Below, one piece after another: positions 6,469-60,841 of a DNA stretch of 64,000 bases. Every line of letters starts with the position of its first letter. Position 1 is the stretch's first letter. Below the pieces are notes generated by a model that was not told the origin of the DNA, made no database searches, and saw nothing but the letters and a program-made list of their open reading frames with translations. The DNA is taken from assembly GCF_021653975.1 (NCBI RefSeq), contig NZ_JAJKFK010000007.1, positions 1 through 64,000 of the forward strand. The letters are read 5' to 3'. A program made the translations under genes and the position numbers. This stretch comes from Amycolatopsis sp. GM8 (GTDB lineage: Bacteria > Actinomycetota > Actinomycetes > Mycobacteriales > Pseudonocardiaceae).

Positions 6469-6599
6469 CAACGTCGAACTCACTGTCGTGAGCGTCGGAC
6501 TCGCCGTCCTGAGTGTCGGACTCGCGGGGGCCCGCGCGAGTCGGACGGTCAGGACGCCGAGTTGTGCGCTGGGGACGGCGAGTTGTGCGGTCGGGGCGG
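6469..6599. repeat. Class I 21-bp-period repeats with inverted copies
   Basis: Imperfect 21-bp units with the core GTCGGACTCGC appear first in one polarity, then in the opposite polarity (GCGAGTCGGAC, GGCGAGTTGTGC). The pair at 6515-6526 and 6535-6546 forms a 12-nt stem with one mismatch. The array ends at the stop codon of plsC (6600) and fills the gap before the MFS promoter. It may act as a terminator for plsC. The same family occurs at 21819-21990, 34412-34558 and 60738-60840. Confidence 0.75.
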
Positions 6600-7478
6600 C
6601 TAGAGGCCCGCGAGTTCGGCGTGGGCCGGGGCCGGGCCGGCGGAGTCCCGGCGCTGCCGTGGCAGCTGGGCGTGGCCGAGTGCGGAGTGGACGGCGGACT
6701 CGGCCAGCTGGGCGAGTTCCCGGCGGTCGGTGGCGCGGCCGGGCGCGATCTCCTCGCACACGAACACTTCCAGCACCAGCCCGCGCAACCGGGCGACCCG
6801 CAGGAGCGAGTCGATCAGCGACTCCGGGCCGATGAACGCCGGCTGCGTCGTCTCCCGCCCGTCGGCGAGGCGGTAGCGCAGGGCGAGCGGCCGCACCGGC
6901 ACCCCACCGTCGATCGCCGCCTGGAACGTCGCGGAGGTGAACCGCCCGGACGCGAGCCCGCACCAGGTCGTCCCCTCCGGCGTGACGCTCACCAGCGAAC
7001 CGCCGCGCAGGGCGTCGGCCAGCTTCGTCATCGTGGCGGGCAACGTGGAAAGCCGCTCCCGGTCGAGGAAGATGCTGCCACCGCGCGCGACCAGGCCACC
7101 GAGCACCGGCCAGTCCGCGATCTCCTGCTTGGCCAGCGCGAGCATCGGCCGGATCGCGTTGATCGCGACGATGTCCAGCCACGAGATGTGGTTGTTCACG
7201 ACGAGCGCCCCGCGCCCGGGCTCGGAGCGCCGGAAGTCCTTGCCGCCGTGCACCACCAGCCGGACGCCGAACGCCCGCAGCACCGAGGAGAAGATCAGGC
7301 GCGCCAACGGTTCCCGCAGGCCGCTGAACGCCAGCAGCGGGCTGGCGACCACCGCGGACAGCACTACGCCGACCGCCGAGCCGATCCGCAGCACGCGCTG
7401 CGGGAACGGGACCGTCGGGGCGCCGGGAGTCAAGCAGGCGTCACCGCACGGCGACGCCGGCATCCAGGCGTGGCTCAT
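6600..7478 (-). CDS. 1-acyl-glycerol-3-phosphate-type acyltransferase (PlsC/OlsA-like)
   Basis: 292 aa, membrane-associated acyltransferase. Catalytic HX4D is in NHISWLD at 96-102 (H97, D102), the acceptor-binding motif is around SIFLDRERL at 135-143, and PEGT is at 167-170. A hydrophobic segment at about 33-52 anchors it. Its ATG at 7478 overlaps the stop of the OlsB-like gene (ATGA), so the two are translationally coupled. In bacteria an OlsB N-acyltransferase paired with a PlsC-type O-acyltransferase makes ornithine lipid, so this is probably OlsA, but ordinary lysophosphatidic acid acylation cannot be excluded. The order matches M. tuberculosis Rv3026c-Rv3027c. Confidence 0.87.
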   Translation of the reverse strand: MSHAWMPASPCGDACLTPGAPTVPFPQRVLRIGSAVGVVLSAVVASPLLAFSGLREPLARLIFSSVLRAFGVRLVVHGGKDFRRSEPGRGALVVNNHISWLDIVAINAIRPMLALAKQEIADWPVLGGLVARGGSIFLDRERLSTLPATMTKLADALRGGSLVSVTPEGTTWCGLASGRFTSATFQAAIDGGVPVRPLALRYRLADGRETTQPAFIGPESLIDSLLRVARLRGLVLEVFVCEEIAPGRATDRRELAQLAESAVHSALGHAQLPRQRRDSAGPAPAHAELAGL

Positions 7479-9371: not shown

Positions 9372-10157
9372 TCAGATGAGCTTCTGGCCGACGAGGTACT
9401 CGGCGATCTTCGAACCGCCGTCACCCTCGTCATCGACACGCTGGCCCGCGGTGCGCGGCGGCTTCGGGGCCGCCTCGGTCACCTGCGACCACGCGTTGCC
9501 CAGCCCGACCTCGCCCGCGTCGATGCCCAGATCGGCGATGGTGAACTTGTCCACCGGCTTCTTCTTGGCGGCCATGATGCCCTTGAAGGACGGGTAGCGC
9601 GGCTCGTTGATCTTCTCGCTCACGCTCACCAGCGCCGGCAGGCTCGCCTCGAGGTGGGTCAGCCCGTCCTCGGTCTCGCGGTCGGCCTTGACGCTGCCGC
9701 CCTCGACGGTCAGCTGGCGCACGTGGGTCAGCTGCGGCAGCCCCAGCAGCTCGGCCAGGATCGCGGGCACCGCCCCGGCGCGGCCGTCGGAGGCCTCGTT
9801 GCCGGCGATGACGAGGTCGTAGCCCTCGACCTTGCCGATGGCGGCGGCGAGCACCTTCGCGGTGGCGATCACGTCGGAACCGTGCAGCGCCTCGTCGGAG
9901 ACGTGGACGGCCTTGTCGGCACCCATGGACAGCGCCTTGCGGATGGCGTCGGTGGCGCGGTCGGGTCCGACCGAGATCACCGTGACCTCGCCTTCGCCGG
10001 CCTCCTTGATCTTGAGGGCCTCTTCGACGGCCTTCTCGTTGATCTCGTCGAGCACCGCGTCCGCTGATTCGCGGTCAAGCGTGTGGTCCGCATCGGCGAG
10101 CTTCCGCTCCGAATAGGTGTCCGGTACCTGCTTGACCAGGACAACAATCTTCGTCAT
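9372..10157 (-). CDS. etfB: Electron transfer flavoprotein beta subunit
   Basis: 261 aa. EtfB carries AMP and forms the ETF heterodimer. The start MTKIVVLVKQVPDT is typical. The nucleotide-binding segment (LVIAGNEASDGRAGAVPA) and the dehydrogenase recognition-loop region (EASLPALVSVSEKINEPRYPS) are present. The C-terminal tail ends EYLVGQKLI. It is the first gene of the etfBA operon and divergent from degV; the 212-bp gap holds promoters for both. Confidence 0.96.
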   Translation of the reverse strand: MTKIVVLVKQVPDTYSERKLADADHTLDRESADAVLDEINEKAVEEALKIKEAGEGEVTVISVGPDRATDAIRKALSMGADKAVHVSDEALHGSDVIATAKVLAAAIGKVEGYDLVIAGNEASDGRAGAVPAILAELLGLPQLTHVRQLTVEGGSVKADRETEDGLTHLEASLPALVSVSEKINEPRYPSFKGIMAAKKKPVDKFTIADLGIDAGEVGLGNAWSQVTEAAPKPPRTAGQRVDDEGDGGSKIAEYLVGQKLI

Positions 10158-15897: not shown

Positions 15898-15907
15898 GGA
15901 AGCCTCG

Positions 15908-16095
15908 CAGCGGGCCACTCGCTCGCGCAGCGGGCAAACTCACCCGCGCCACCGGCAAACTCACCGACGCCACGGGCAAACACGCCAGCGCCACCGGCAA
16001 ACACGCCGACGCAGCAAGCAAACACGCTCGCGCAGCCCGCAAACTCACGCGCGCGGCAAGCCAACACGCCCGCGCAGCGGGCAAACACGCCGGAG
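15908..16095 (+). repeat. Class II 21-bp tandem repeat array, about nine units
   Basis: From 15928 the array keeps an exact 21-bp period (units begin at 15928, 15949, 15970, 15991, 16012, 16033, 16054 and 16075). The conserved core is GGCAAACTCACC or GGCAAACACGCC. All copies here have the same polarity. It lies 10 bp after the GT4 stop. The family recurs at 45198-45330, 50644-50687 and 57394-57470. 21 bp is two helical turns, so each unit faces the same side of the DNA. Confidence 0.85.
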
Positions 16096-16145: not shown

Positions 16146-16169
16146 CCCACCCACACCTCCCCCAACCCC
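16146..16169 (-). other. C-rich tract, G-quadruplex potential on the minus strand
   Basis: On the minus strand G-runs of 4, 5, 3 and 3 bases are separated by short loops. The same tract stands at 50716-50739. It forms the left border of the four-way-junction element; CCCCGAT at its end can pair with ATCGGGG at 16290-16296. Confidence 0.4.
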
Positions 16170-16183
16170 GATAGAAAGCCGCC

Positions 16184-16278
16184 CTAGCGGTTGGCACGTC
16201 GTGTCAAGGGTGACCGCGCCAGCGGTCATCGCGATAGCGACGCCGAAGGCGCCCTTGACGCGGCGTGCCAACCGTTAG
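16184..16278. ncRNA. 95-nt four-way-junction element, copy 1
   Basis: A 27-bp closing stem (16184-16210 with 16252-16278) encloses three hairpins that abut exactly: TGACCGC/GCGGTCA with a 4-nt loop (16211-16228), TCGC/GCGA (16229-16240) and CGCC/GGCG with a GAA loop (16241-16251). No base is unpaired between helices. Mismatches in the stem are all G-U type. Copy 2 (50754-50848) differs in the 3' arm only at positions that keep pairing. No open frame, promoter or known RNA family is recognised. It could be an RNA, a DNA cruciform or a mobile-element end. Confidence 0.55.
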
Positions 16279-16315
16279 ACGATCAGGCGATCGGGGTGGG
16301 CCGCTACCCCAGACC

Positions 16316-16367: not shown

Positions 16368-16593
16368 AGATGTCCTCGCCGGACGGGCAGGCTCCAGGAT
16401 GACTGACCCCAAGGGATCTCACCTTGAGTGGGTGGTTGAGTTGGGTGGTCATCCCGTCGCCTGCGGTTTTCGAATATCACTTTTCCTCAGAGCCGCAAGC
16501 ATTGGTCAGTCAGGCGCAAGCCGGGCAGGAAGGTTGCGGCCCTGACGAAAAGTGATCGTTCCTGTGACAGGCGACGGGATGACCACCCAACTC
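16368..16593 (-). repeat. 226-bp intergenic element with 156-bp inverted repeat, copy 1
   Basis: The last 156 bp (16438-16593) is a long inverted repeat. The outer 26-nt arms at 16438-16463 and 16568-16593 are perfect complements. Inner stems are ATCACTTTTC/GAAAAGTGAT and a 12-nt stem around GCCGCAA/TTGCGGC with one mismatch; the remaining loop is variable. The first 70 bp (16368-16437) is conserved but not part of the large stem. It ends 22 bp from the stop codon of the minus-strand gene at 16616. Copies 2 and 3 have exactly the same length. Small frames inside it are a consequence of the conserved sequence, not genes. Confidence 0.85.
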
Positions 16594-16615: not shown

Positions 16616-17071
16616 CTAAAAGACCGGCAGCGCCTTCCCCCGCTCCTCCACCGACCTCGGCCCAAAAATACGCCGCTCGCCCTCCCCAATCCTCACATCA
16701 TTAATACTCGCCTCGCGCCGGCGCATCAGGCCGTCGTCGCTGAATTCCCACAGTTCGTTGCCGTAGCTGCGGTACCACTGCCCCGACGCGTCGTGGCATT
16801 CGTACTGGAAACGTACCGCGATCCGGTTCCCGTGGAAGCCCCAGAGTTCCTTGCGCAGCGCGTAGTCCAGTTCGCGGTTCCATTTGCCCGTCAAGAACTT
16901 CACGATCGCGGCACGCCCGACGACATGCTGGTCGCGGTTACGCCACACCGAGTCTTCGGTGTAGGCCAGTGCGACCTTCTCGGGGTCACGCGTGTTCCAG
17001 GCGTCTTCCGCGGCCTGGACCTTCTGCGCGGCGGTGGTCTCGTCGAACGGCGGGAATGGTGGGCGGCTCAT
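16616..17071 (-). CDS. Nuclear transport factor 2-like protein, DUF1348
   Basis: 151 aa, one cystatin/NTF2-like domain. The DUF1348 pattern is clear: [61 protein letters not shown] and the end [10 protein letters not shown]. Members are small soluble proteins without an assigned reaction. The start is taken at ATG 17071, where family similarity begins. It is monocistronic, with a hairpin upstream at 17115-17152 separating it from aceB. Confidence 0.85.
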
Positions 17072-17114
17072 GATCCCGAGCATAGAGAACCAGCGTTCTC
17101 CTCGCCAGTGCGAA

Positions 17115-17152
17115 ACAGGCCCGGTGGAGGTTGGGGACCCCACCGGGCCTGT
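17115..17152 (-). terminator. Hairpin between aceB and the DUF1348 gene
   Basis: A perfect 13-bp stem (ACAGGCCCGGTGG with CCACCGGGCCTGT) and a 12-nt loop lies about 70 bp after the aceB stop. It has no T-run but should form a stable terminator for aceB. Confidence 0.65.
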
Positions 17153-21818: not shown

Positions 21819-21990
21819 CCGCGAGTCCGACGCTCGCGACGACGAGTCCGACACCGGAGACGGCGAGTCCAACACCAGGGACGGCGAGTCCGACACTCGT
21901 GCGGCGCGGGTCCTCCGGGGTGCCCCATGAGTGTCGAACTCGCTGTACTGAACGTCGAACTCGGCGTATCGGGCGTCGGACTCGCGGGGG
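21819..21990. repeat. Class I 21-bp repeats, four forward and three inverted units
   Basis: Four 21-bp units with the core GCGAGTCCGAC run forward from 21819, then about 30 bp of spacer, then three units in the opposite polarity (core GTCGAACTCGC). The facing pair 21886-21898 and 21929-21941 forms a 13-nt stem with one mismatch. The block fills the whole gap between two convergent genes (ramB and DUF2332), so a two-way terminator role is likely. Confidence 0.8.
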
Positions 21991-34411: not shown

Positions 34412-34558
34412 CGCGAGTCCGACCCCGCGCGGCGGCGAGTCCGACCCCCGCGACACCGAGTCCGACACCCGCGACGGCGAGTCAGACATTCACGACACCG
34501 AGTCCGACCCGCGCGACGCCGAGTCCGACATTCAAGACAGCGAACCCGACCCCGCGGC
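34412..34558 (+). repeat. Class I 21-bp tandem repeats, seven units in one polarity
   Basis: Seven units keep an exact 21-bp period from 34412, with the core CGAGTCCGAC. All units have the same polarity here. Because 21 is seven codons, a frame stays open and reads an acidic heptad repeat (ESDPRDT-like), but nothing else supports a protein. The array lies between the 3' end of the DUF2277 gene and the 5' end of the secreted protein gene. Confidence 0.82.
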
Positions 34559-34570
34559 GCGGCCGCGGGG
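34550..34570 (-). terminator. GC-rich hairpin after the DUF2277 gene
   Basis: A perfect 9-bp stem, CCCCGCGGC with GCCGCGGGG and a 3-nt loop, lies 10 bp after the DUF2277 stop. It partly overlaps the last class I repeat unit. Confidence 0.6.
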
Positions 34571-45197: not shown

Positions 45198-45330
45198 GTG
45201 TTTGCCCGCCACGTCGGTGAGTTTGCTCCCCGCGTCGATGGCTTGGCGTCGCACGCGGCCAACACGCCAGCGCGGCCAGCCAACACGCCAGCGCAAGCGG
45301 CCAACACGCCGGCCGCACCCGGCAACAAAC
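45198..45330. repeat. Class II 21-bp repeats with inverted copies
   Basis: Two units in inverted polarity (GTTTGCCCGCCACG, GTTTGCTCCC) come first, then degenerate forward units with GGCCAACACGCC cores. It begins 9 bp after the bcp stop. The inverted pair could act as a terminator for bcp. Confidence 0.7.
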
Positions 45331-45346: not shown

Positions 45347-45396
45347 CCCACCCCCTCCCCCATCCGCGAACACTCAAAGATCGGGGCGGGGGAGGG
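45347..45396. repeat. C-rich/G-rich arms without the four-way junction
   Basis: A C-rich arm (45347-45364) and a G-rich arm (45379-45396) are roughly complementary and enclose only about 14 nt. In the other two modules the matching arms enclose the 95-nt junction element. This copy may have lost the element or never gained it. From here to 45494 the gap holds A-rich sequence (CAAAAGATCAAAAG) and no gene. Confidence 0.5.
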
Positions 45397-45494: not shown

Positions 45495-45720
45495 AGATGT
45501 CCTCGCCGGACGGGCTGGCTCCGGGATGAGGGGGCCCAGGGGATCTCACCTTGGGTGGGTGGTCGAGTTGGGTGGTCATCCCGTCGCCTGCGGTTTTCGA
45601 ATATCACTTTTCGCCAGAGCCGCAAGCTTTGTGTTCTCGGCCGCAAGCCGGGTACGGATGTTGCGGCCCTGACGAAAAGTGATCGTGCCGGTTTCAGGCG
45701 ACGGGATGACCACCCAACTC
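45495..45720 (-). repeat. 226-bp intergenic element with 156-bp inverted repeat, copy 2
   Basis: Same length and structure as the copies at 16368 and 50933. The 156-bp inverted repeat is 45565-45720 with perfect 26-nt outer arms (45565-45590, 45695-45720). The inner ATCACTTTTC/GAAAAGTGAT stem is kept. The first 70 bp shows most of the differences from the other copies. It ends 19 bp from the rdgB stop. Confidence 0.85.
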
Positions 45721-49120: not shown

Positions 49121-49921
49121 TCAGCGCGTTGCCGGCGAAAGGACGCCGGGCGCGAACCCCATGAACCGCTGTGCCAGCCGGGCGAACGGCTCGGGCGAAC
49201 CGGTCGCGATGAACTCGTGCCGGGGCTCGCCGTCGCGCTCCGCGAGCAGGTCCTGTTCGGTCAGCACCCGGACGAGGTCCTTGGCGGTTTCCTCCGCGCT
49301 GGACACGAGGGTCACGTCGGGCCCCATGACGATCTGGAGCACGCCGGTGAGCAGCGGATAATGGGTGCAGCCGAGCACGAGGGTGTCGACTTCCGCGCGT
49401 AGCAACGGTTCCAGATACCCCTGGGCCAGACCGAGGATCTGCCGCCCGGACGTGATGCCGCGCTCCACGAAGTCGACGAAGCGCGGGCAGGCGATACTGC
49501 TGATGGTCACGTCGCGCGCCGCCGCGAACGCGTCGTCGTACGCTCGGGACCGGACTGTGCCTTCGGTGCCGATCACGCCGATGCGCCCGGTGTGGGTCGC
49601 CGCGACCGCGCGCCGGACGGCGGGGAGCACTACCTCGATCACCGGAACGTCGTACCGTTCGCGTGCGTCGCGCAGGCAGGCGGCGGACGCCGTGTTGCAG
49701 GCGATCACCAGCGCCTTGACCCCGCCGTCGACCATCTCGTCCATCGCCGCCAGCGCCAGCTCCCGCGCCCGCGCGATGGGGAGCGGGCCGTACGGGTTGT
49801 GCGCGGTGTCGCCGACGTAGCGAAGCTGCTCGTGCGGAAGCTGTTCGAGGATCGCGCGGGCGACGGTCAACCCACCAACGCCGGAATCGAACACGCCGAT
49901 CGGAGAGCGACCATTGATCAC
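49121..49921 (-). CDS. murI: Glutamate racemase
   Basis: 266 aa. It makes D-glutamate for peptidoglycan. The N-terminal [10 protein letters not shown] at 11-20 and the two catalytic cysteines, C75 in IACNTASA and a second in LGCTHYPLL, are present. GTG start at 49921 overlaps the rhomboid stop (GTGA). Expected to be essential, which matters because direct repeats flank this block. Confidence 0.96.
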
Positions 49922-50550
49922 ACCTCGACGGTACCGGAGGCCTTCTTCGCCTTCGCCCGGTCGGCCCTGGCCGCGAGCCAGGCCGCGATGACCCCGCCGA
50001 GCGCGCCGAACACGTGCGCCTGCCAGGAGATGCCCGGGTTGCCGGGCAGGAGGCCCCACAGCGTCCCGCCCCAGATCAGCAACAGGACCGCGGCGATGAC
50101 CAGTTGTCCGAATGACTTGTTGAAGATCCCGCGGACCAGCAGATACGCGAGCCACCCGAACGCGAGGCCCGATGCGCCGATCGTCGACGTGCCACTGTCA
50201 CCGGTGAGCCATACGCCGAGGCCGCTGACCACCCAGATCAGTGCGGTGACGGCGATCCATCGGGTGAGGCCGGACGCCATCGCGAGGAAACCGAAGACCA
50301 GGATCGGGATCGTGTTGCTGAACAGGTGCGTCCAGCTACCGTGCAAGACGGGCGCCCACACTATGCCGTCGAGCCCGGACAGCGTTCTCGGGACGACTCC
50401 CTCACCGTCGAGGCGGTGATGCAACCCGGTGTCGACGAGCTCGATCAGGTACAACAGGGCGGTGAACGCGAGCACCACGATGCCCGCGGACTTGTACTTC
50501 ACCGGCAGAATCCGCTTGGCGGGGTCCGCGGGCGCAGGCAGCGTGCTCAT
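49918..50550 (-). CDS. Rhomboid family intramembrane serine protease
   Basis: 210 aa with six predicted helices. The catalytic serine is in GASGLAFG and the histidine in [12 protein letters not shown]; the [14 protein letters not shown] loop matches rhomboid helix 2. The start is ATG 50550, since GGAGGG (50552-50557) stands just before it and overlaps a possible GTG at 50559. It heads the rhomboid-murI-MBL operon. Orthologue of Rv1337 by order. Confidence 0.9.
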
Positions 50551-50643
50551 GCCCTCCACGGTACTGACCTGGGAAGACCGCGACCTCGGGTGAAAACCCT
50601 GAAATCAGATGCTGCGCGCTCGTCGTTGCCACACGTCGCCGCG

Positions 50644-50687
50644 CAGCGGGCAAACTCACCGACACAGCGAGCAAACACGCCCGCACC
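50644..50687 (+). repeat. Class II 21-bp repeats, two units
   Basis: Two units (cores GGGCAAACTCACC and GAGCAAACACGCC) stand about 95 bp upstream of the rhomboid start, at the left end of the third composite module. Confidence 0.65.
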
Positions 50688-50715
50688 TGGCAACGAAACG
50701 CAACAACGAAAGCAG

Positions 50716-50739
50716 CCCACCCACACCTCCCCCAACCCC
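50716..50739 (-). other. C-rich tract, G-quadruplex potential on the minus strand
   Basis: Identical to the tract at 16146-16169 and in the same place relative to the junction element. Confidence 0.4.
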
Positions 50740-50753
50740 GATAGAAAGCCGCC

Positions 50754-50848
50754 CTAGCGGTTGGCACGTCGTGTCAAGGGTGACCGCGCCAGCGGTCATC
50801 GCGATAGCGACGCCGAAGGCGCCCTTGATACGACGTGCCAACCGTTAG
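50754..50848. ncRNA. 95-nt four-way-junction element, copy 2
   Basis: Same layout as copy 1: 27-bp closing stem (50754-50780 with 50822-50848) and hairpins at 50781-50798, 50799-50810 and 50811-50821. The 5' arm and the three hairpins are identical to copy 1. In the 3' arm three bases differ, and each still pairs with the unchanged 5' arm through a standard or G-U pair. Whether it is transcribed is not known. Confidence 0.55.
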
Positions 50849-50932
50849 ACGATCGGCGATCGGGGTGGGCCCGGCGGACAACATCGCGCGGAGCGCGACG
50901 CCCCTCGCGCGGAGCACGAGGGAAAGAGAAAA

Positions 50933-51158
50933 AGATGTCCTCGCCGGACGGGCAGGCTCCAGGATGACTGACCCCAAGGGATCTCACCTTGGGTGGGTGG
51001 TTGAGTTGGGTGGTCATCCCGTCGCCTGCGGTTTTCGAATATCACTTTTCCTCAGGGCCGCAAGCTTTGTGTTCTCGGCTGCGCGCCGGGCAGGAAGGTT
51101 GCGGCCCTGACGAAAAGTGATCGTTCCTGTTTCAGGCGACGGGATGACCACCCAACTC
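50933..51158 (-). repeat. 226-bp intergenic element with 156-bp inverted repeat, copy 3
   Basis: Inverted repeat 51003-51158 with perfect 26-nt outer arms (51003-51028, 51133-51158), the ATCACTTTTC/GAAAAGTGAT stem and a perfect 12-nt inner stem TCAGGGCCGCAA/TTGCGGCCCTGA. It ends 12 bp from the cysM stop. It differs from copy 1 mainly in the loop (51065-51090), and lies 5.4 kb from copy 2 in the same orientation. Confidence 0.85.
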
Positions 51159-51170
51159 GGCCCCTGGGCT

Positions 51171-52404
<1,234 letters not shown>

Positions 52405-57393: not shown

Positions 57394-57470
57394 GCGTCGG
57401 TGAGTTGGCCGCGCCCGGCGCAAACTCACCGACGCAGCGGGCAAACTCACCGACGTGGCGGGCCAACACG
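57394..57470. repeat. Class II 21-bp repeats forming a hairpin between convergent genes
   Basis: GCGTCGGTGAGTT (57394-57406) and AACTCACCGACGC (57423-57435) form a perfect 13-bp stem; further forward units with GGCAAACTCACC and GGCCAACACGG follow up to the stop of the next gene. Likely a two-way terminator for the aldolase and the secreted protein gene. Confidence 0.75.
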
Positions 57471-60387: not shown

Positions 60388-60729
60388 GTGTCTCAGGACT
60401 CGCCTCGCGCGAAATCGCGCACGGTCAGTGTCGACGACATCGGGGTGCGCCGCCAGCTCGCCGACGGGAGCGAGGAGTCGGTCACCTGGGCGGAGCTGTC
60501 CGCCGTGGTGGTCAGGGTGATCCCCGAAGGCCCGTGGAACGAGGATGTGTTCCTGATGCTGGCCGGCGCCGACGGCCACGGCACGGCGGTGCCGAGCGGT
60601 GACCCGGCCGCGGATGCCCTCATCGAGCGCCTACAGACTCTGCCCGGTTTCGACAACGACAAGTTCGTCGAGGCGATGACCACCGACGCCGACAAGGCGT
60701 ACGTCGTCTGGAAGTCCGAGTCCAACTAG
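60388..60729 (+). CDS. Small conserved-type protein, function unknown
   Basis: 113 aa from GTG 60388, behind AAAGGAG at 60377-60383; an ATG at 60367 is a weaker choice. The chain is acidic: VSVDDIGVRRQLADGSEESV, WAELSAVVVRVIPEGPWNED, FLMLAGADGHGTAVPSG and GFDNDKFVEAM. It could be a PH-like or small beta fold, as in 'DUF' proteins beside dinG in actinobacteria, but no family is recognised. The stop is followed by class I repeats. Confidence 0.72.
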   Translation: MSQDSPRAKSRTVSVDDIGVRRQLADGSEESVTWAELSAVVVRVIPEGPWNEDVFLMLAGADGHGTAVPSGDPAADALIERLQTLPGFDNDKFVEAMTTDADKAYVVWKSESN

Positions 60730-60737
60730 CCCGCCCG

Positions 60738-60840
60738 GCTGTCGAACTCACCGTCGCGAGCGTCGGACTCGCGGTTCCCGACGTCGGACTCGCGCGTGCG
60801 CCCGCGAGTCGTACGTTCAGGACGGCGAGTTCTGCGTTCG
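60738..60840. repeat. Class I 21-bp repeats with inverted copies
   Basis: Three units in one polarity (cores GTCGAACTC, GTCGGACTCGC) meet two units in the other (GCGAGTCGTAC, GGCGAGTTCTG). The pair 60783-60794 and 60803-60814 gives a 12-nt stem with one mismatch. The block fills the gap between two convergent genes. Confidence 0.78.
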
Positions 60841-60841
60841 G

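What the first reader, a model, noticed from the sequence alone, without database searches (positions are those of the whole stretch)
16368..16593. A 226-bp element with a 156-bp inverted repeat occurs three times with no length change
Copies at 16368-16593, 45495-45720 and 50933-51158 are all exactly 226 bp, and in each the inverted repeat is the last 156 bp. The 26-nt outer arms are perfect complements in all copies, as is the inner ATCACTTTTC/GAAAAGTGAT stem, while the central loop varies. All three have the same orientation and end 12-22 bp from the stop codon of a minus-strand gene (DUF1348, rdgB, cysM). Stem conservation with a free loop suggests selection on structure. I recognise no named family. 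It could be a non-autonomous mobile element (MITE), a strong terminator or 3'-end stabiliser, or a structured RNA.
Basis: seen in the sequence. Interest (0 to 1): 0.82.

Follow-up and report, generated by a model that had tools for sequence, protein, structure and literature searches.

The report
Dispersed hairpin kin of conjugative elements
The window holds three of about 35 copies of a long folded DNA repeat that sits between the ends of neighbouring genes in an Amycolatopsis genome and is related to a hairpin carried by integrating conjugative elements, which suggests that a piece of a mobile element's own control DNA has become a repeat family in its own right.

Summary
Confirmed, and larger than reported. 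The genome holds 35 near-full copies; a 16-mer of the outer arm matches 70 times exactly, always in pairs, with no lone arm. Matches occur in 17 of 19 genomes of the genus (Amycolatopsis). Each copy is a 70-bp left module plus a 156-bp hairpin (IR1), usually preceded by a second palindrome (IR2). IR1 covaries: 20 of 44 pairs change on both sides. Of 114 copies with both neighbours called, 79 lie between convergent genes. Two sites have clean empty counterparts with stop codons 8 and 18 bp apart. Orthologous copies are hardly more alike than random cross-genome copies, and copies are mosaics, so they evolve in concert. In other genera the module is found inside pSAM2-type AICEs near attR (RepSA in 13 of 20 neighbourhoods), opposite to repSA in 21 of 21. 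Best reading: a dispersed non-coding relative of an AICE cis-acting hairpin, perhaps its single-strand origin. Function and route of spread are unproven. It fails MITE tests and matches no Rfam family.

The parts
15906..16091 (+). 21-nt tandem repeat array (about 9 units) after the stop of the left-hand glycosyltransferase gene; neighbour of copy 1, probably not part of the unit
16155..16300 (+). Copy 1: second long palindrome (IR2); outer arms 16155-16174 and 16289-16300, inner arms 16187-16210 and 16252-16277
16368..16437 (+). Copy 1: left module, the part also found alone and conserved in AICE copies
16438..16593 (-). Copy 1: IR1 hairpin; outer arms 16438-16463 and 16568-16593, internal loop 12/11 nt, inner arms 16476-16498 and 16534-16556; wobbles are tolerated more on the minus strand
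16616..17143 (-). DUF1348 gene whose stop lies 22 bp from copy 1
45351..45396 (+). Copy 2: shortened IR2 (outer arms kept, inner stem missing)
45495..45720 (-).
50725..50869 (+). Copy 3: IR2
50933..51158 (-). Copy 3: left module (50933-51002) plus IR1 hairpin (51003-51158), between a rhomboid gene (49918-50559, -) and the stop of a cysM-like gene (51171-52121, -)

Best explanation
The 226-bp repeat is the right-hand part of a non-coding unit of up to about 0.5 kb (IR2 palindrome, GC-rich hairpins, left module, IR1 hairpin) that descends from, or shares an ancestor with, a cis-acting hairpin locus of pSAM2-type AICEs. In AICEs the locus sits towards the end of the element, near attR, and most likely works as part of the rolling-circle replication origin, best guess the single-strand origin: the displaced strand folds and is recognised by a host or element protein. 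In this Amycolatopsis genus the unit has become a dispersed family. Copies entered the gaps between gene 3' ends, above all between convergent genes, and are kept alike within each genome by recombination (gene conversion) while structure and outer arms stay constrained. Shown: copy number, structure and covariation, site gain or loss, concerted evolution, homology to the AICE locus and its place and polarity there. Inferred: origin function, insertion through a single-stranded intermediate, and mobilisation in trans by an AICE replication protein.
For: 35 copies and 70 of 70 exact arm 16-mers; matches in 17 of 19 genus genomes, own included. Covariation: 20 of 44 pairs changed on both sides, score 0.211 against 0.085 shuffled and at most 0.061 when slid. 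Gain or loss: G015 has 508 bp between two convergent stops that are 8 bp apart in G006; G011 has relatives of the window's glycosyltransferase (87%) and DUF1348 (85%) genes with stops 18 bp apart. Concerted evolution: seven G000-G005 orthologous pairs are 0.75-0.81 identical (mean 0.79) against 0.769 for all cross pairs and 0.845 within G000; in only 2 of 40 orthologous pairs is each copy the other's closest among copies held; all four gametes at 523 of 820 site pairs. AICE link: 55 of 150 family genomes and 28 of 46 genera match the IR1 covariance model; 13 of 20 neighbourhoods fetched hold RepSA, 12 of them TraSA (Pfam RepSA and FtsK in L229); in 10 of 12 loci with a tRNA the tRNA's 3' part recurs 0.2-2.8 kb beyond the hairpin. 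In the genus 8 of 10 RepSA regions of this AICE subtype carry it and 0 of 10 of the other (Fisher p 0.0007). repSA is opposite in 21 of 21. Wobbles favour the minus strand: 106 against 8 in chromosomal copies (40 against 8 genome-by-pair events) and 62 against 16 in family copies; this is the polarity of the rep mRNA and hence (textbook, recalled) of displaced rolling-circle DNA.
Against: No origin activity was tested, and no similarity to a known sso was found: the AICE locus gave one 33-base chance-like plasmid match, the window copy none in plasmids or phages. Chromosomal copies are on average only 57-73% identical to AICE copies of the genus, so they are not recent offshoots. RNA folding energy does not favour the minus strand in chromosomal copies (51 of 128; p 0.14), only in the AICE/family set (21 of 29; p 0.003). 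In G005 alone the wobble bias nearly vanishes (14 to 12), and IR2 shows no consistent strand preference. Mutational strand bias or arm-to-arm correction could mimic part of the wobble bias and covariation. No target-site duplication was shown. Seven of 20 neighbourhoods lack RepSA, though several hold integrase or GntR pieces; in 2 of 12 loci with a tRNA no att repeat was found.
Confidence: 0.5

Rival explanations
1. A 3'-UTR RNA element: the long hairpin in the transcript of the right-hand gene stops transcription, is an RNase III site or protects the mRNA 3' end; its copies are kept at gene ends for that reason.
For: 112 of 127 chromosomal copies with a called right-hand gene face that gene's stop, 96 of these within 60 bp; wobbles favour the strand of that transcript; strong covariation.
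Against: AICE and family copies keep structure and strand bias although only 2 of 21 have a called gene reading in within 100 bp; most genomes lack it at the two sites examined (17 of 19 and 15 of 19); 13 copies lie downstream of the left gene only; no canonical terminator was predicted at the hairpin.
Confidence: 0.2
2. An ordinary MITE: non-autonomous derivative of a DNA transposon with 26-bp terminal inverted repeats.
For: Small, non-coding, inverted-repeat ends, multi-copy, intergenic, clean empty sites.
Against: The inverted repeat covers only the last 156 bp, while the left module and usually IR2 are co-inherited; none of 70 arms lies outside a pair in the own genome; an inner stem with covariation is unusual for a MITE; no target duplication seen; AICE homology is unexplained.
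Confidence: 0.1
3. A transfer (clt-like) site read by the AICE FtsK-type TraSA, with chromosomal copies acting as clt-like chromosomal sites that steer mobilisation of the chromosome.
For: In the genus present only with one AICE subtype, defined by TraSA and the 126-aa protein (8 of 10 against 0 of 10); TraB of pSVH1 is reported to bind chromosomal clt-like regions (passage of PMC3218068).
Against: clt sites are described as short direct repeats (recalled), not hairpins; no orientation bias along replichores for the listed copies of three genomes (19 of 30, 11 of 20, 4 of 8; p 0.2 or more).
Confidence: 0.12
4. Covariation is an artefact of arm-to-arm correction (quasi-palindrome repair or gene conversion) and the repeats are neutral.
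For: Extensive recombination between copies; inverted repeats can be corrected from each other.
Against: The 12/11-nt internal loop has stayed non-complementary in the aligned copies (by eye); the arm 16-mer is exact in 70 of 70 places while other parts differ; the module is conserved in many genera.
Confidence: 0.08

Closest known systems
pSAM2-type AICEs (actinomycete integrative and conjugative elements, RepSA/TraSA)
   Same: A homologous module (left module plus IR1) lies inside them near attR in other genera and in AICEs of this genus.
   Different: The window copies carry no genes, are dispersed in about 35 places, and form a separate sequence subfamily.
Single-strand origins of rolling-circle plasmids and of ICEBs1 (PMC4595007, passages read)
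   Same: About 200-bp foldable intergenic region, orientation-specific; here fixed polarity to rep and conserved folding.
   Different: No sequence similarity shown and no activity tested; ICEBs1 sso1 is a single site between nicK and ydcS.
DSO-gene-SSO mobilisation in staphylococcal rolling-circle plasmids (PMC5037232, abstract read)
   Same: Model in which origin sequences without a transposase mobilise DNA.
   Different: That model moves a gene between plasmids; here non-coding units lie in chromosomes.
REP/BIME and other small dispersed palindromic repeats (PMC2817692 and PMC1590033, search listings only)
   Same: Intergenic, multi-copy, palindromic, mosaic combinations.
   Different: Far longer (226 bp to about 0.5 kb), with a two-stem covarying structure; a RAYT partner was not searched for.
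Correia/NEMIS and ERIC elements (recalled)
   Same: Short inverted-repeat elements of 100-160 bp near genes.
   Different: Different phyla, not compared by sequence here, and no target duplication shown here.

Membership tests
MITE | terminal inverted repeats at both ends of the unit | tested here: not met
   The repeat bounds only the 156-bp hairpin; left module and usually IR2 are inherited with it.
MITE | autonomous element with the same ends in the genome | tested here: not met
   70 of 70 arm hits are 35 short pairs; one mismatch allowed (own genome only).
MITE | target-site duplication | tested here: inconclusive
   Empty sites found, but the nearest empty relative is about 11% diverged there.
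REP/BIME | palindromic units of 20-40 nt | tested here: not met
   Unit is 226 bp or more.
REP/BIME | linked RAYT transposase | not tested
   No search for RAYT was made.
Rolling-circle single-strand origin | conserved foldable hairpin in an element with a rolling-circle initiator | tested here: met
   RepSA in 13 of 20 family neighbourhoods; consensus structure.
Rolling-circle single-strand origin | fixed polarity relative to rep, structure on the displaced strand | tested here: met
   21 of 21 opposite to repSA; wobble bias 62 to 16 on the matching strand. The polarity of the displaced strand is recalled, not tested.
Rolling-circle single-strand origin | priming activity in one orientation | not testable with these tools
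   Needs an experiment.
Intrinsic terminator | GC-rich short stem-loop directly followed by a T run | tested here: not met
   At copy 1 no site predicted at the hairpin; one at 16044-16026 in the 21-nt repeats, shuffles mean 1.3. Copies 2 and 3 were not scanned.
Known Rfam RNA family | match above the gathering score | tested here: not met
   Copy 1 region and 20 family loci: three tRNAs above the gathering score, the rest below it.
AICE clt site | binding by TraSA/TraB to short repeats | not testable with these tools
   Only association with an AICE subtype and lack of chromosomal polarity.

The most novel reading that the evidence does not exclude
Origin-derived mobile repeats: a rolling-circle origin region of an integrating conjugative element has become a gene-free, dispersed parasite of the chromosome that is copied into gaps between convergent genes by the element's HUH-type initiator acting in trans on single-stranded DNA, and is homogenised within each genome, so that conjugative elements have spawned SINE-like repeats in bacteria.
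Probability: 0.22. Interest if true: 0.9.

Novelty: new variant of a known kind. Interest (0 to 1): 0.68.

Why it matters
Bacterial small repeats are normally traced to transposons or to REP/RAYT pairs. Here the only relative found is a cis-acting hairpin of AICEs, conserved in position and polarity in several genera; among the papers listed in my library searches none was seen to describe it. It gives a concrete candidate for an AICE origin or transfer site, an example of within-genome concerted evolution of about 35 dispersed 226-bp repeats, and a testable route by which conjugative elements may seed chromosomal repeats. The repeats also lie at contig breaks and mark convergent gene ends across Amycolatopsis, a genus of antibiotic producers.

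Tried and rejected
Rfam on the window copy and on 20 family loci: no relevant family. Autonomous transposon with the same ends: none in the own genome. KOPS-like polarity along replichores: none for the listed copies of three genomes. IR2 strand test: inconsistent between subtypes (GT to AC 11:1, 3:5, 18:25, 15:32). Folding-energy comparison of strands: no difference in chromosomal copies with RNA parameters (with DNA parameters the minus strand is the more stable in 78 of 128). Plasmid and phage collections: one 33-base plasmid match for the AICE locus, none for the window copy. Integron attC sites were considered because of the position after stop codons and the strand-specific hairpin, but no integron integrase was looked for and AICE homology explains more. 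A candidate nick motif in the left palindrome of AICE copies (18 of 29 loci) was found in only 1 of 118 chromosomal copies, so it is not used as evidence. Literature searches listed no paper on such a repeat in Amycolatopsis or on an sso in an AICE; only the listed papers were looked at, and the pSAM2 origin paper (Hagege 1993) is not held.

Full report
OBSERVATION. The three copies are as described: 226 bp each, perfect identical 26-nt outer arms, the same inner stem, variable loop, and ends 22, 19 and 12 bp from minus-strand stop codons. The minus strand of copy 1 folds at -128.7 kcal/mol as RNA, z = -8.8, with 0 of 200 shuffles as good; as DNA z = -8.8.

COPY NUMBER. The genome (8.16 Mb, 22 contigs) holds 35 near-full-length copies plus four left-end fragments. 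Only 40 of 55 first-look candidates were scored, but a pattern search of the outer arm gave the same number: 35 forward and 35 reverse hits of a 16-mer, all 70 without mismatch though one was allowed, all in pairs. The left-module pattern gave 43 hits with up to two mismatches against 5 for the reversed control. Seventeen of 19 genomes of the genus, own included, have matches, from 1 or 2 (G008, G018) to more than 70 (both strands of a copy can count). Record titles name Amycolatopsis sacchari, deserti, bartoniae, pithecellobii and thermalba; contig lengths equate these with G012, G006, G005, G010 and G014.

ANATOMY. From left to right: a second long palindrome (IR2, about 145 bp), GC-rich short hairpins or an A-rich stretch, the left module (about 70 bp), and IR1 (156 bp: 26-bp outer stem, 12/11-nt internal loop, 23-nt inner stem with a mismatch in G000 copies, variable loop). 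The right arm of IR2 was found by pattern in 24 of 32 own-genome copies with enough left flank (the pattern misses some, such as L010, which one search finds), at a near-constant distance. L036-L039 have unrelated left flanks. Places with the left module but no arms exist, and one G006 site keeps only the outer stem with a short loop.

STRUCTURE. On 60 copies chosen for diversity from 128 aligned ones, 20 of 44 pairs have a change on both sides, 97.9% of cells pair, and the covariation score is 0.211 against 0.085 in shuffles, with no shuffle reaching any of the five measures. The structure was derived from the same alignment, which favours it over slid versions. Counting A-C against G-T on the plus strand over all 128 copies gives 106 to 8, or 40 to 8 when each genome-pair combination counts once; per genome it ranges from 14 to 12 (G005) to 14 to 2 (G003). 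In 21 family copies it is 62 to 16, at 26 against 10 positions. Wobbles are thus tolerated more on the minus strand, but RNA folding energies differ only in the AICE/family set (21 of 29, p 0.003) and not in chromosomal copies (51 of 128, p 0.14). A mutational strand bias is a possible alternative.

GENOMIC PLACE. With my own gene caller, of 128 near-full-length copies (35 own, 93 from selected loci of other genomes), 114 had genes called on both sides: 79 convergent, 33 tandem, 2 divergent. The right-hand neighbour ends towards the element in 112 of 127 copies with one called, median 27 bp, 96 within 60 bp. For the 35 own copies: 22 convergent, 8 tandem, 2 divergent, 3 with no left gene called.

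GAIN AND LOSS. In about 330 kb syntenic between G006 and G015 there are five element sites: two full in both, one full in G015 and cleanly absent in G006, one full in G015 and reduced to the outer stem in G006, one full in G006 and, by eye, only a remnant beside an N run in G015. At the clean site G006 has the two stop codons 8 bp apart and G015 has 508 bp between them. Across 19 genomes that site is filled in G015 and G007, shows an arm at a contig end in G017, a left-module remnant in G009, and gives no hit in the other 15 (the gene is split over two contigs in G011). At the window's DUF1348 site 2 of 19 genomes have a hit, G000 and G001. Whether the other neighbour gene is the same was checked only for G011, which keeps the glycosyltransferase (87% identical) with stops 18 bp apart. 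Insertion is the simpler reading at both sites, but losses are also seen.

CONCERTED EVOLUTION. Flanking proteins show many shared positions between species, by one or both neighbours. Orthologous copies are hardly more alike than random cross-genome copies: the seven G000-G005 pairs are 0.75-0.81 (mean 0.79) against 0.769, while copies within G000 average 0.845. In 2 of 40 orthologous pairs, both between the close genomes G015 and G017 (0.972, 0.918), is each copy the other's closest among the copies held. Within G000, 523 of 820 pairs of two-state sites show all four combinations, including 99 of 150 pairs at least 120 nt apart. Gene conversion between copies is the simplest reading; repeated re-insertion at favoured sites is not excluded.

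AICE LINK. A covariance model of IR1 matched 55 of 150 genomes of the family, 28 of 46 genera, mostly with 1-4 matches outside this genus (both strands of a copy can count), and in a sample of 249 genomes of the order only members of this family (14 genomes; stricter filters in both). Of 24 family loci returned, 21 match from the left module on. I fetched 20-kb surroundings of 20 family copies (19 from other genera, one from G008 of this genus). RepSA was found in 13 of 20 and TraSA in 12. In L229 the order is tRNA-Pro, integrase, HTH_17 (Xis-like), RepSA (PF20199, E 3e-152), DUF2637, FtsK-type TraSA, a 126-130-aa protein without a Pfam family, GntR-UTRA regulator, DUF218 cargo, hairpin, att repeat. 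Of 12 loci with a tRNA, 10 show the tRNA's 3' part again 0.2-2.8 kb beyond the hairpin, and L225 and L230 do not; in L239 the enclosed remnant is only 2.7 kb. In this genus I fetched 20 of the 44 listed RepSA hits (the 21 best but one). Ten are of the subtype with TraSA and the 126-aa protein, and 8 of these carry the module; of the other 10 none does, apart from one chromosomal copy 16 kb away. The hairpin is opposite to repSA in 21 of 21. Seven of the eight AICE copies of the genus resemble each other (means 0.83-0.88, one outlier at 0.61) and the best AICE copies of other genera (0.86-0.91), but average only 0.57-0.73 to chromosomal copies, so the two are old sister lineages.

MECHANISM. 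The AICE position, the polarity to repSA and the strand on which wobbles are tolerated fit a structure used on displaced single-stranded DNA in rolling-circle replication, best guess a single-strand origin. ssos are orientation-specific regions, active when single-stranded, that recruit host RNA polymerase or primase, and one is proven in ICEBs1 (PMC4595007, passages). That AICEs carry an origin and a RepSA initiator with HUH-type motifs, and transfer as double-stranded DNA through Tra and clt, is from PMC3218068 (passages). How units reach chromosomal sites is not shown; a precedent for origin-flanked mobility without a transposase is the DSO-gene-SSO model (PMC5037232, abstract).

ALTERNATIVES. 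A 3'-UTR role is possible today but does not explain AICE copies or patchy occurrence. A classical MITE fails two tests. A clt-like site lacks polarity support. Neutral arm correction conflicts with the stable internal loop.

Noticed in passing
L078, L084, L090 (G005, A. bartoniae), left of the element: Three copies of a 99.7-100% identical IS110-family transposase gene (PF01548) are inserted at the same point in the terminal loop of IR2, so an IS110 member appears to use this repeat as its target, reminiscent of IS621 in REP sequences (recalled).
   Followed up: partly
window 15906-16091, 45250-45327, 50612-50708, 57420-57467: Arrays of a 21-nt repeat (GGCAAACTCACCGACGCC-like); a 15-nt core has 60 hits in the genome against 1 in the reversed control.
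   Followed up: partly
window 6472-6600, 21821-21896, 34414-34560, 60725-60841: A second family of 21-nt repeats with a different sequence (GAGTCCGACACCCGCGACG-like), in both orientations.
   Followed up: no
AICE and AICE-remnant loci, 145-173 nt left of the left module (65 nt in L232): A nearly invariant pyrimidine-rich motif, mostly ending in CTTGTTCAAGG, in 18 of 29 loci; a candidate initiator nick region.
   Followed up: partly
G154 (L202), genus g16: Another genus has five places with the hairpin (10 matches, each place on both strands); the one examined has the chromosomal-type sequence and lies between convergent sdhB-like and subtilase-like genes.
   Followed up: no
L235 (G079), oriented positions 9832 and 11410: Two AICE-type hairpins 1.6 kb apart, one before and one beyond the att repeat, suggesting tandem remnants.
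   Followed up: no
G012 contigs C14, C15, C17, C24, C39, C67: Contigs end about 70-490 bases from the element, so assemblies seem to break at it and copy numbers in draft genomes are minima.
   Followed up: no
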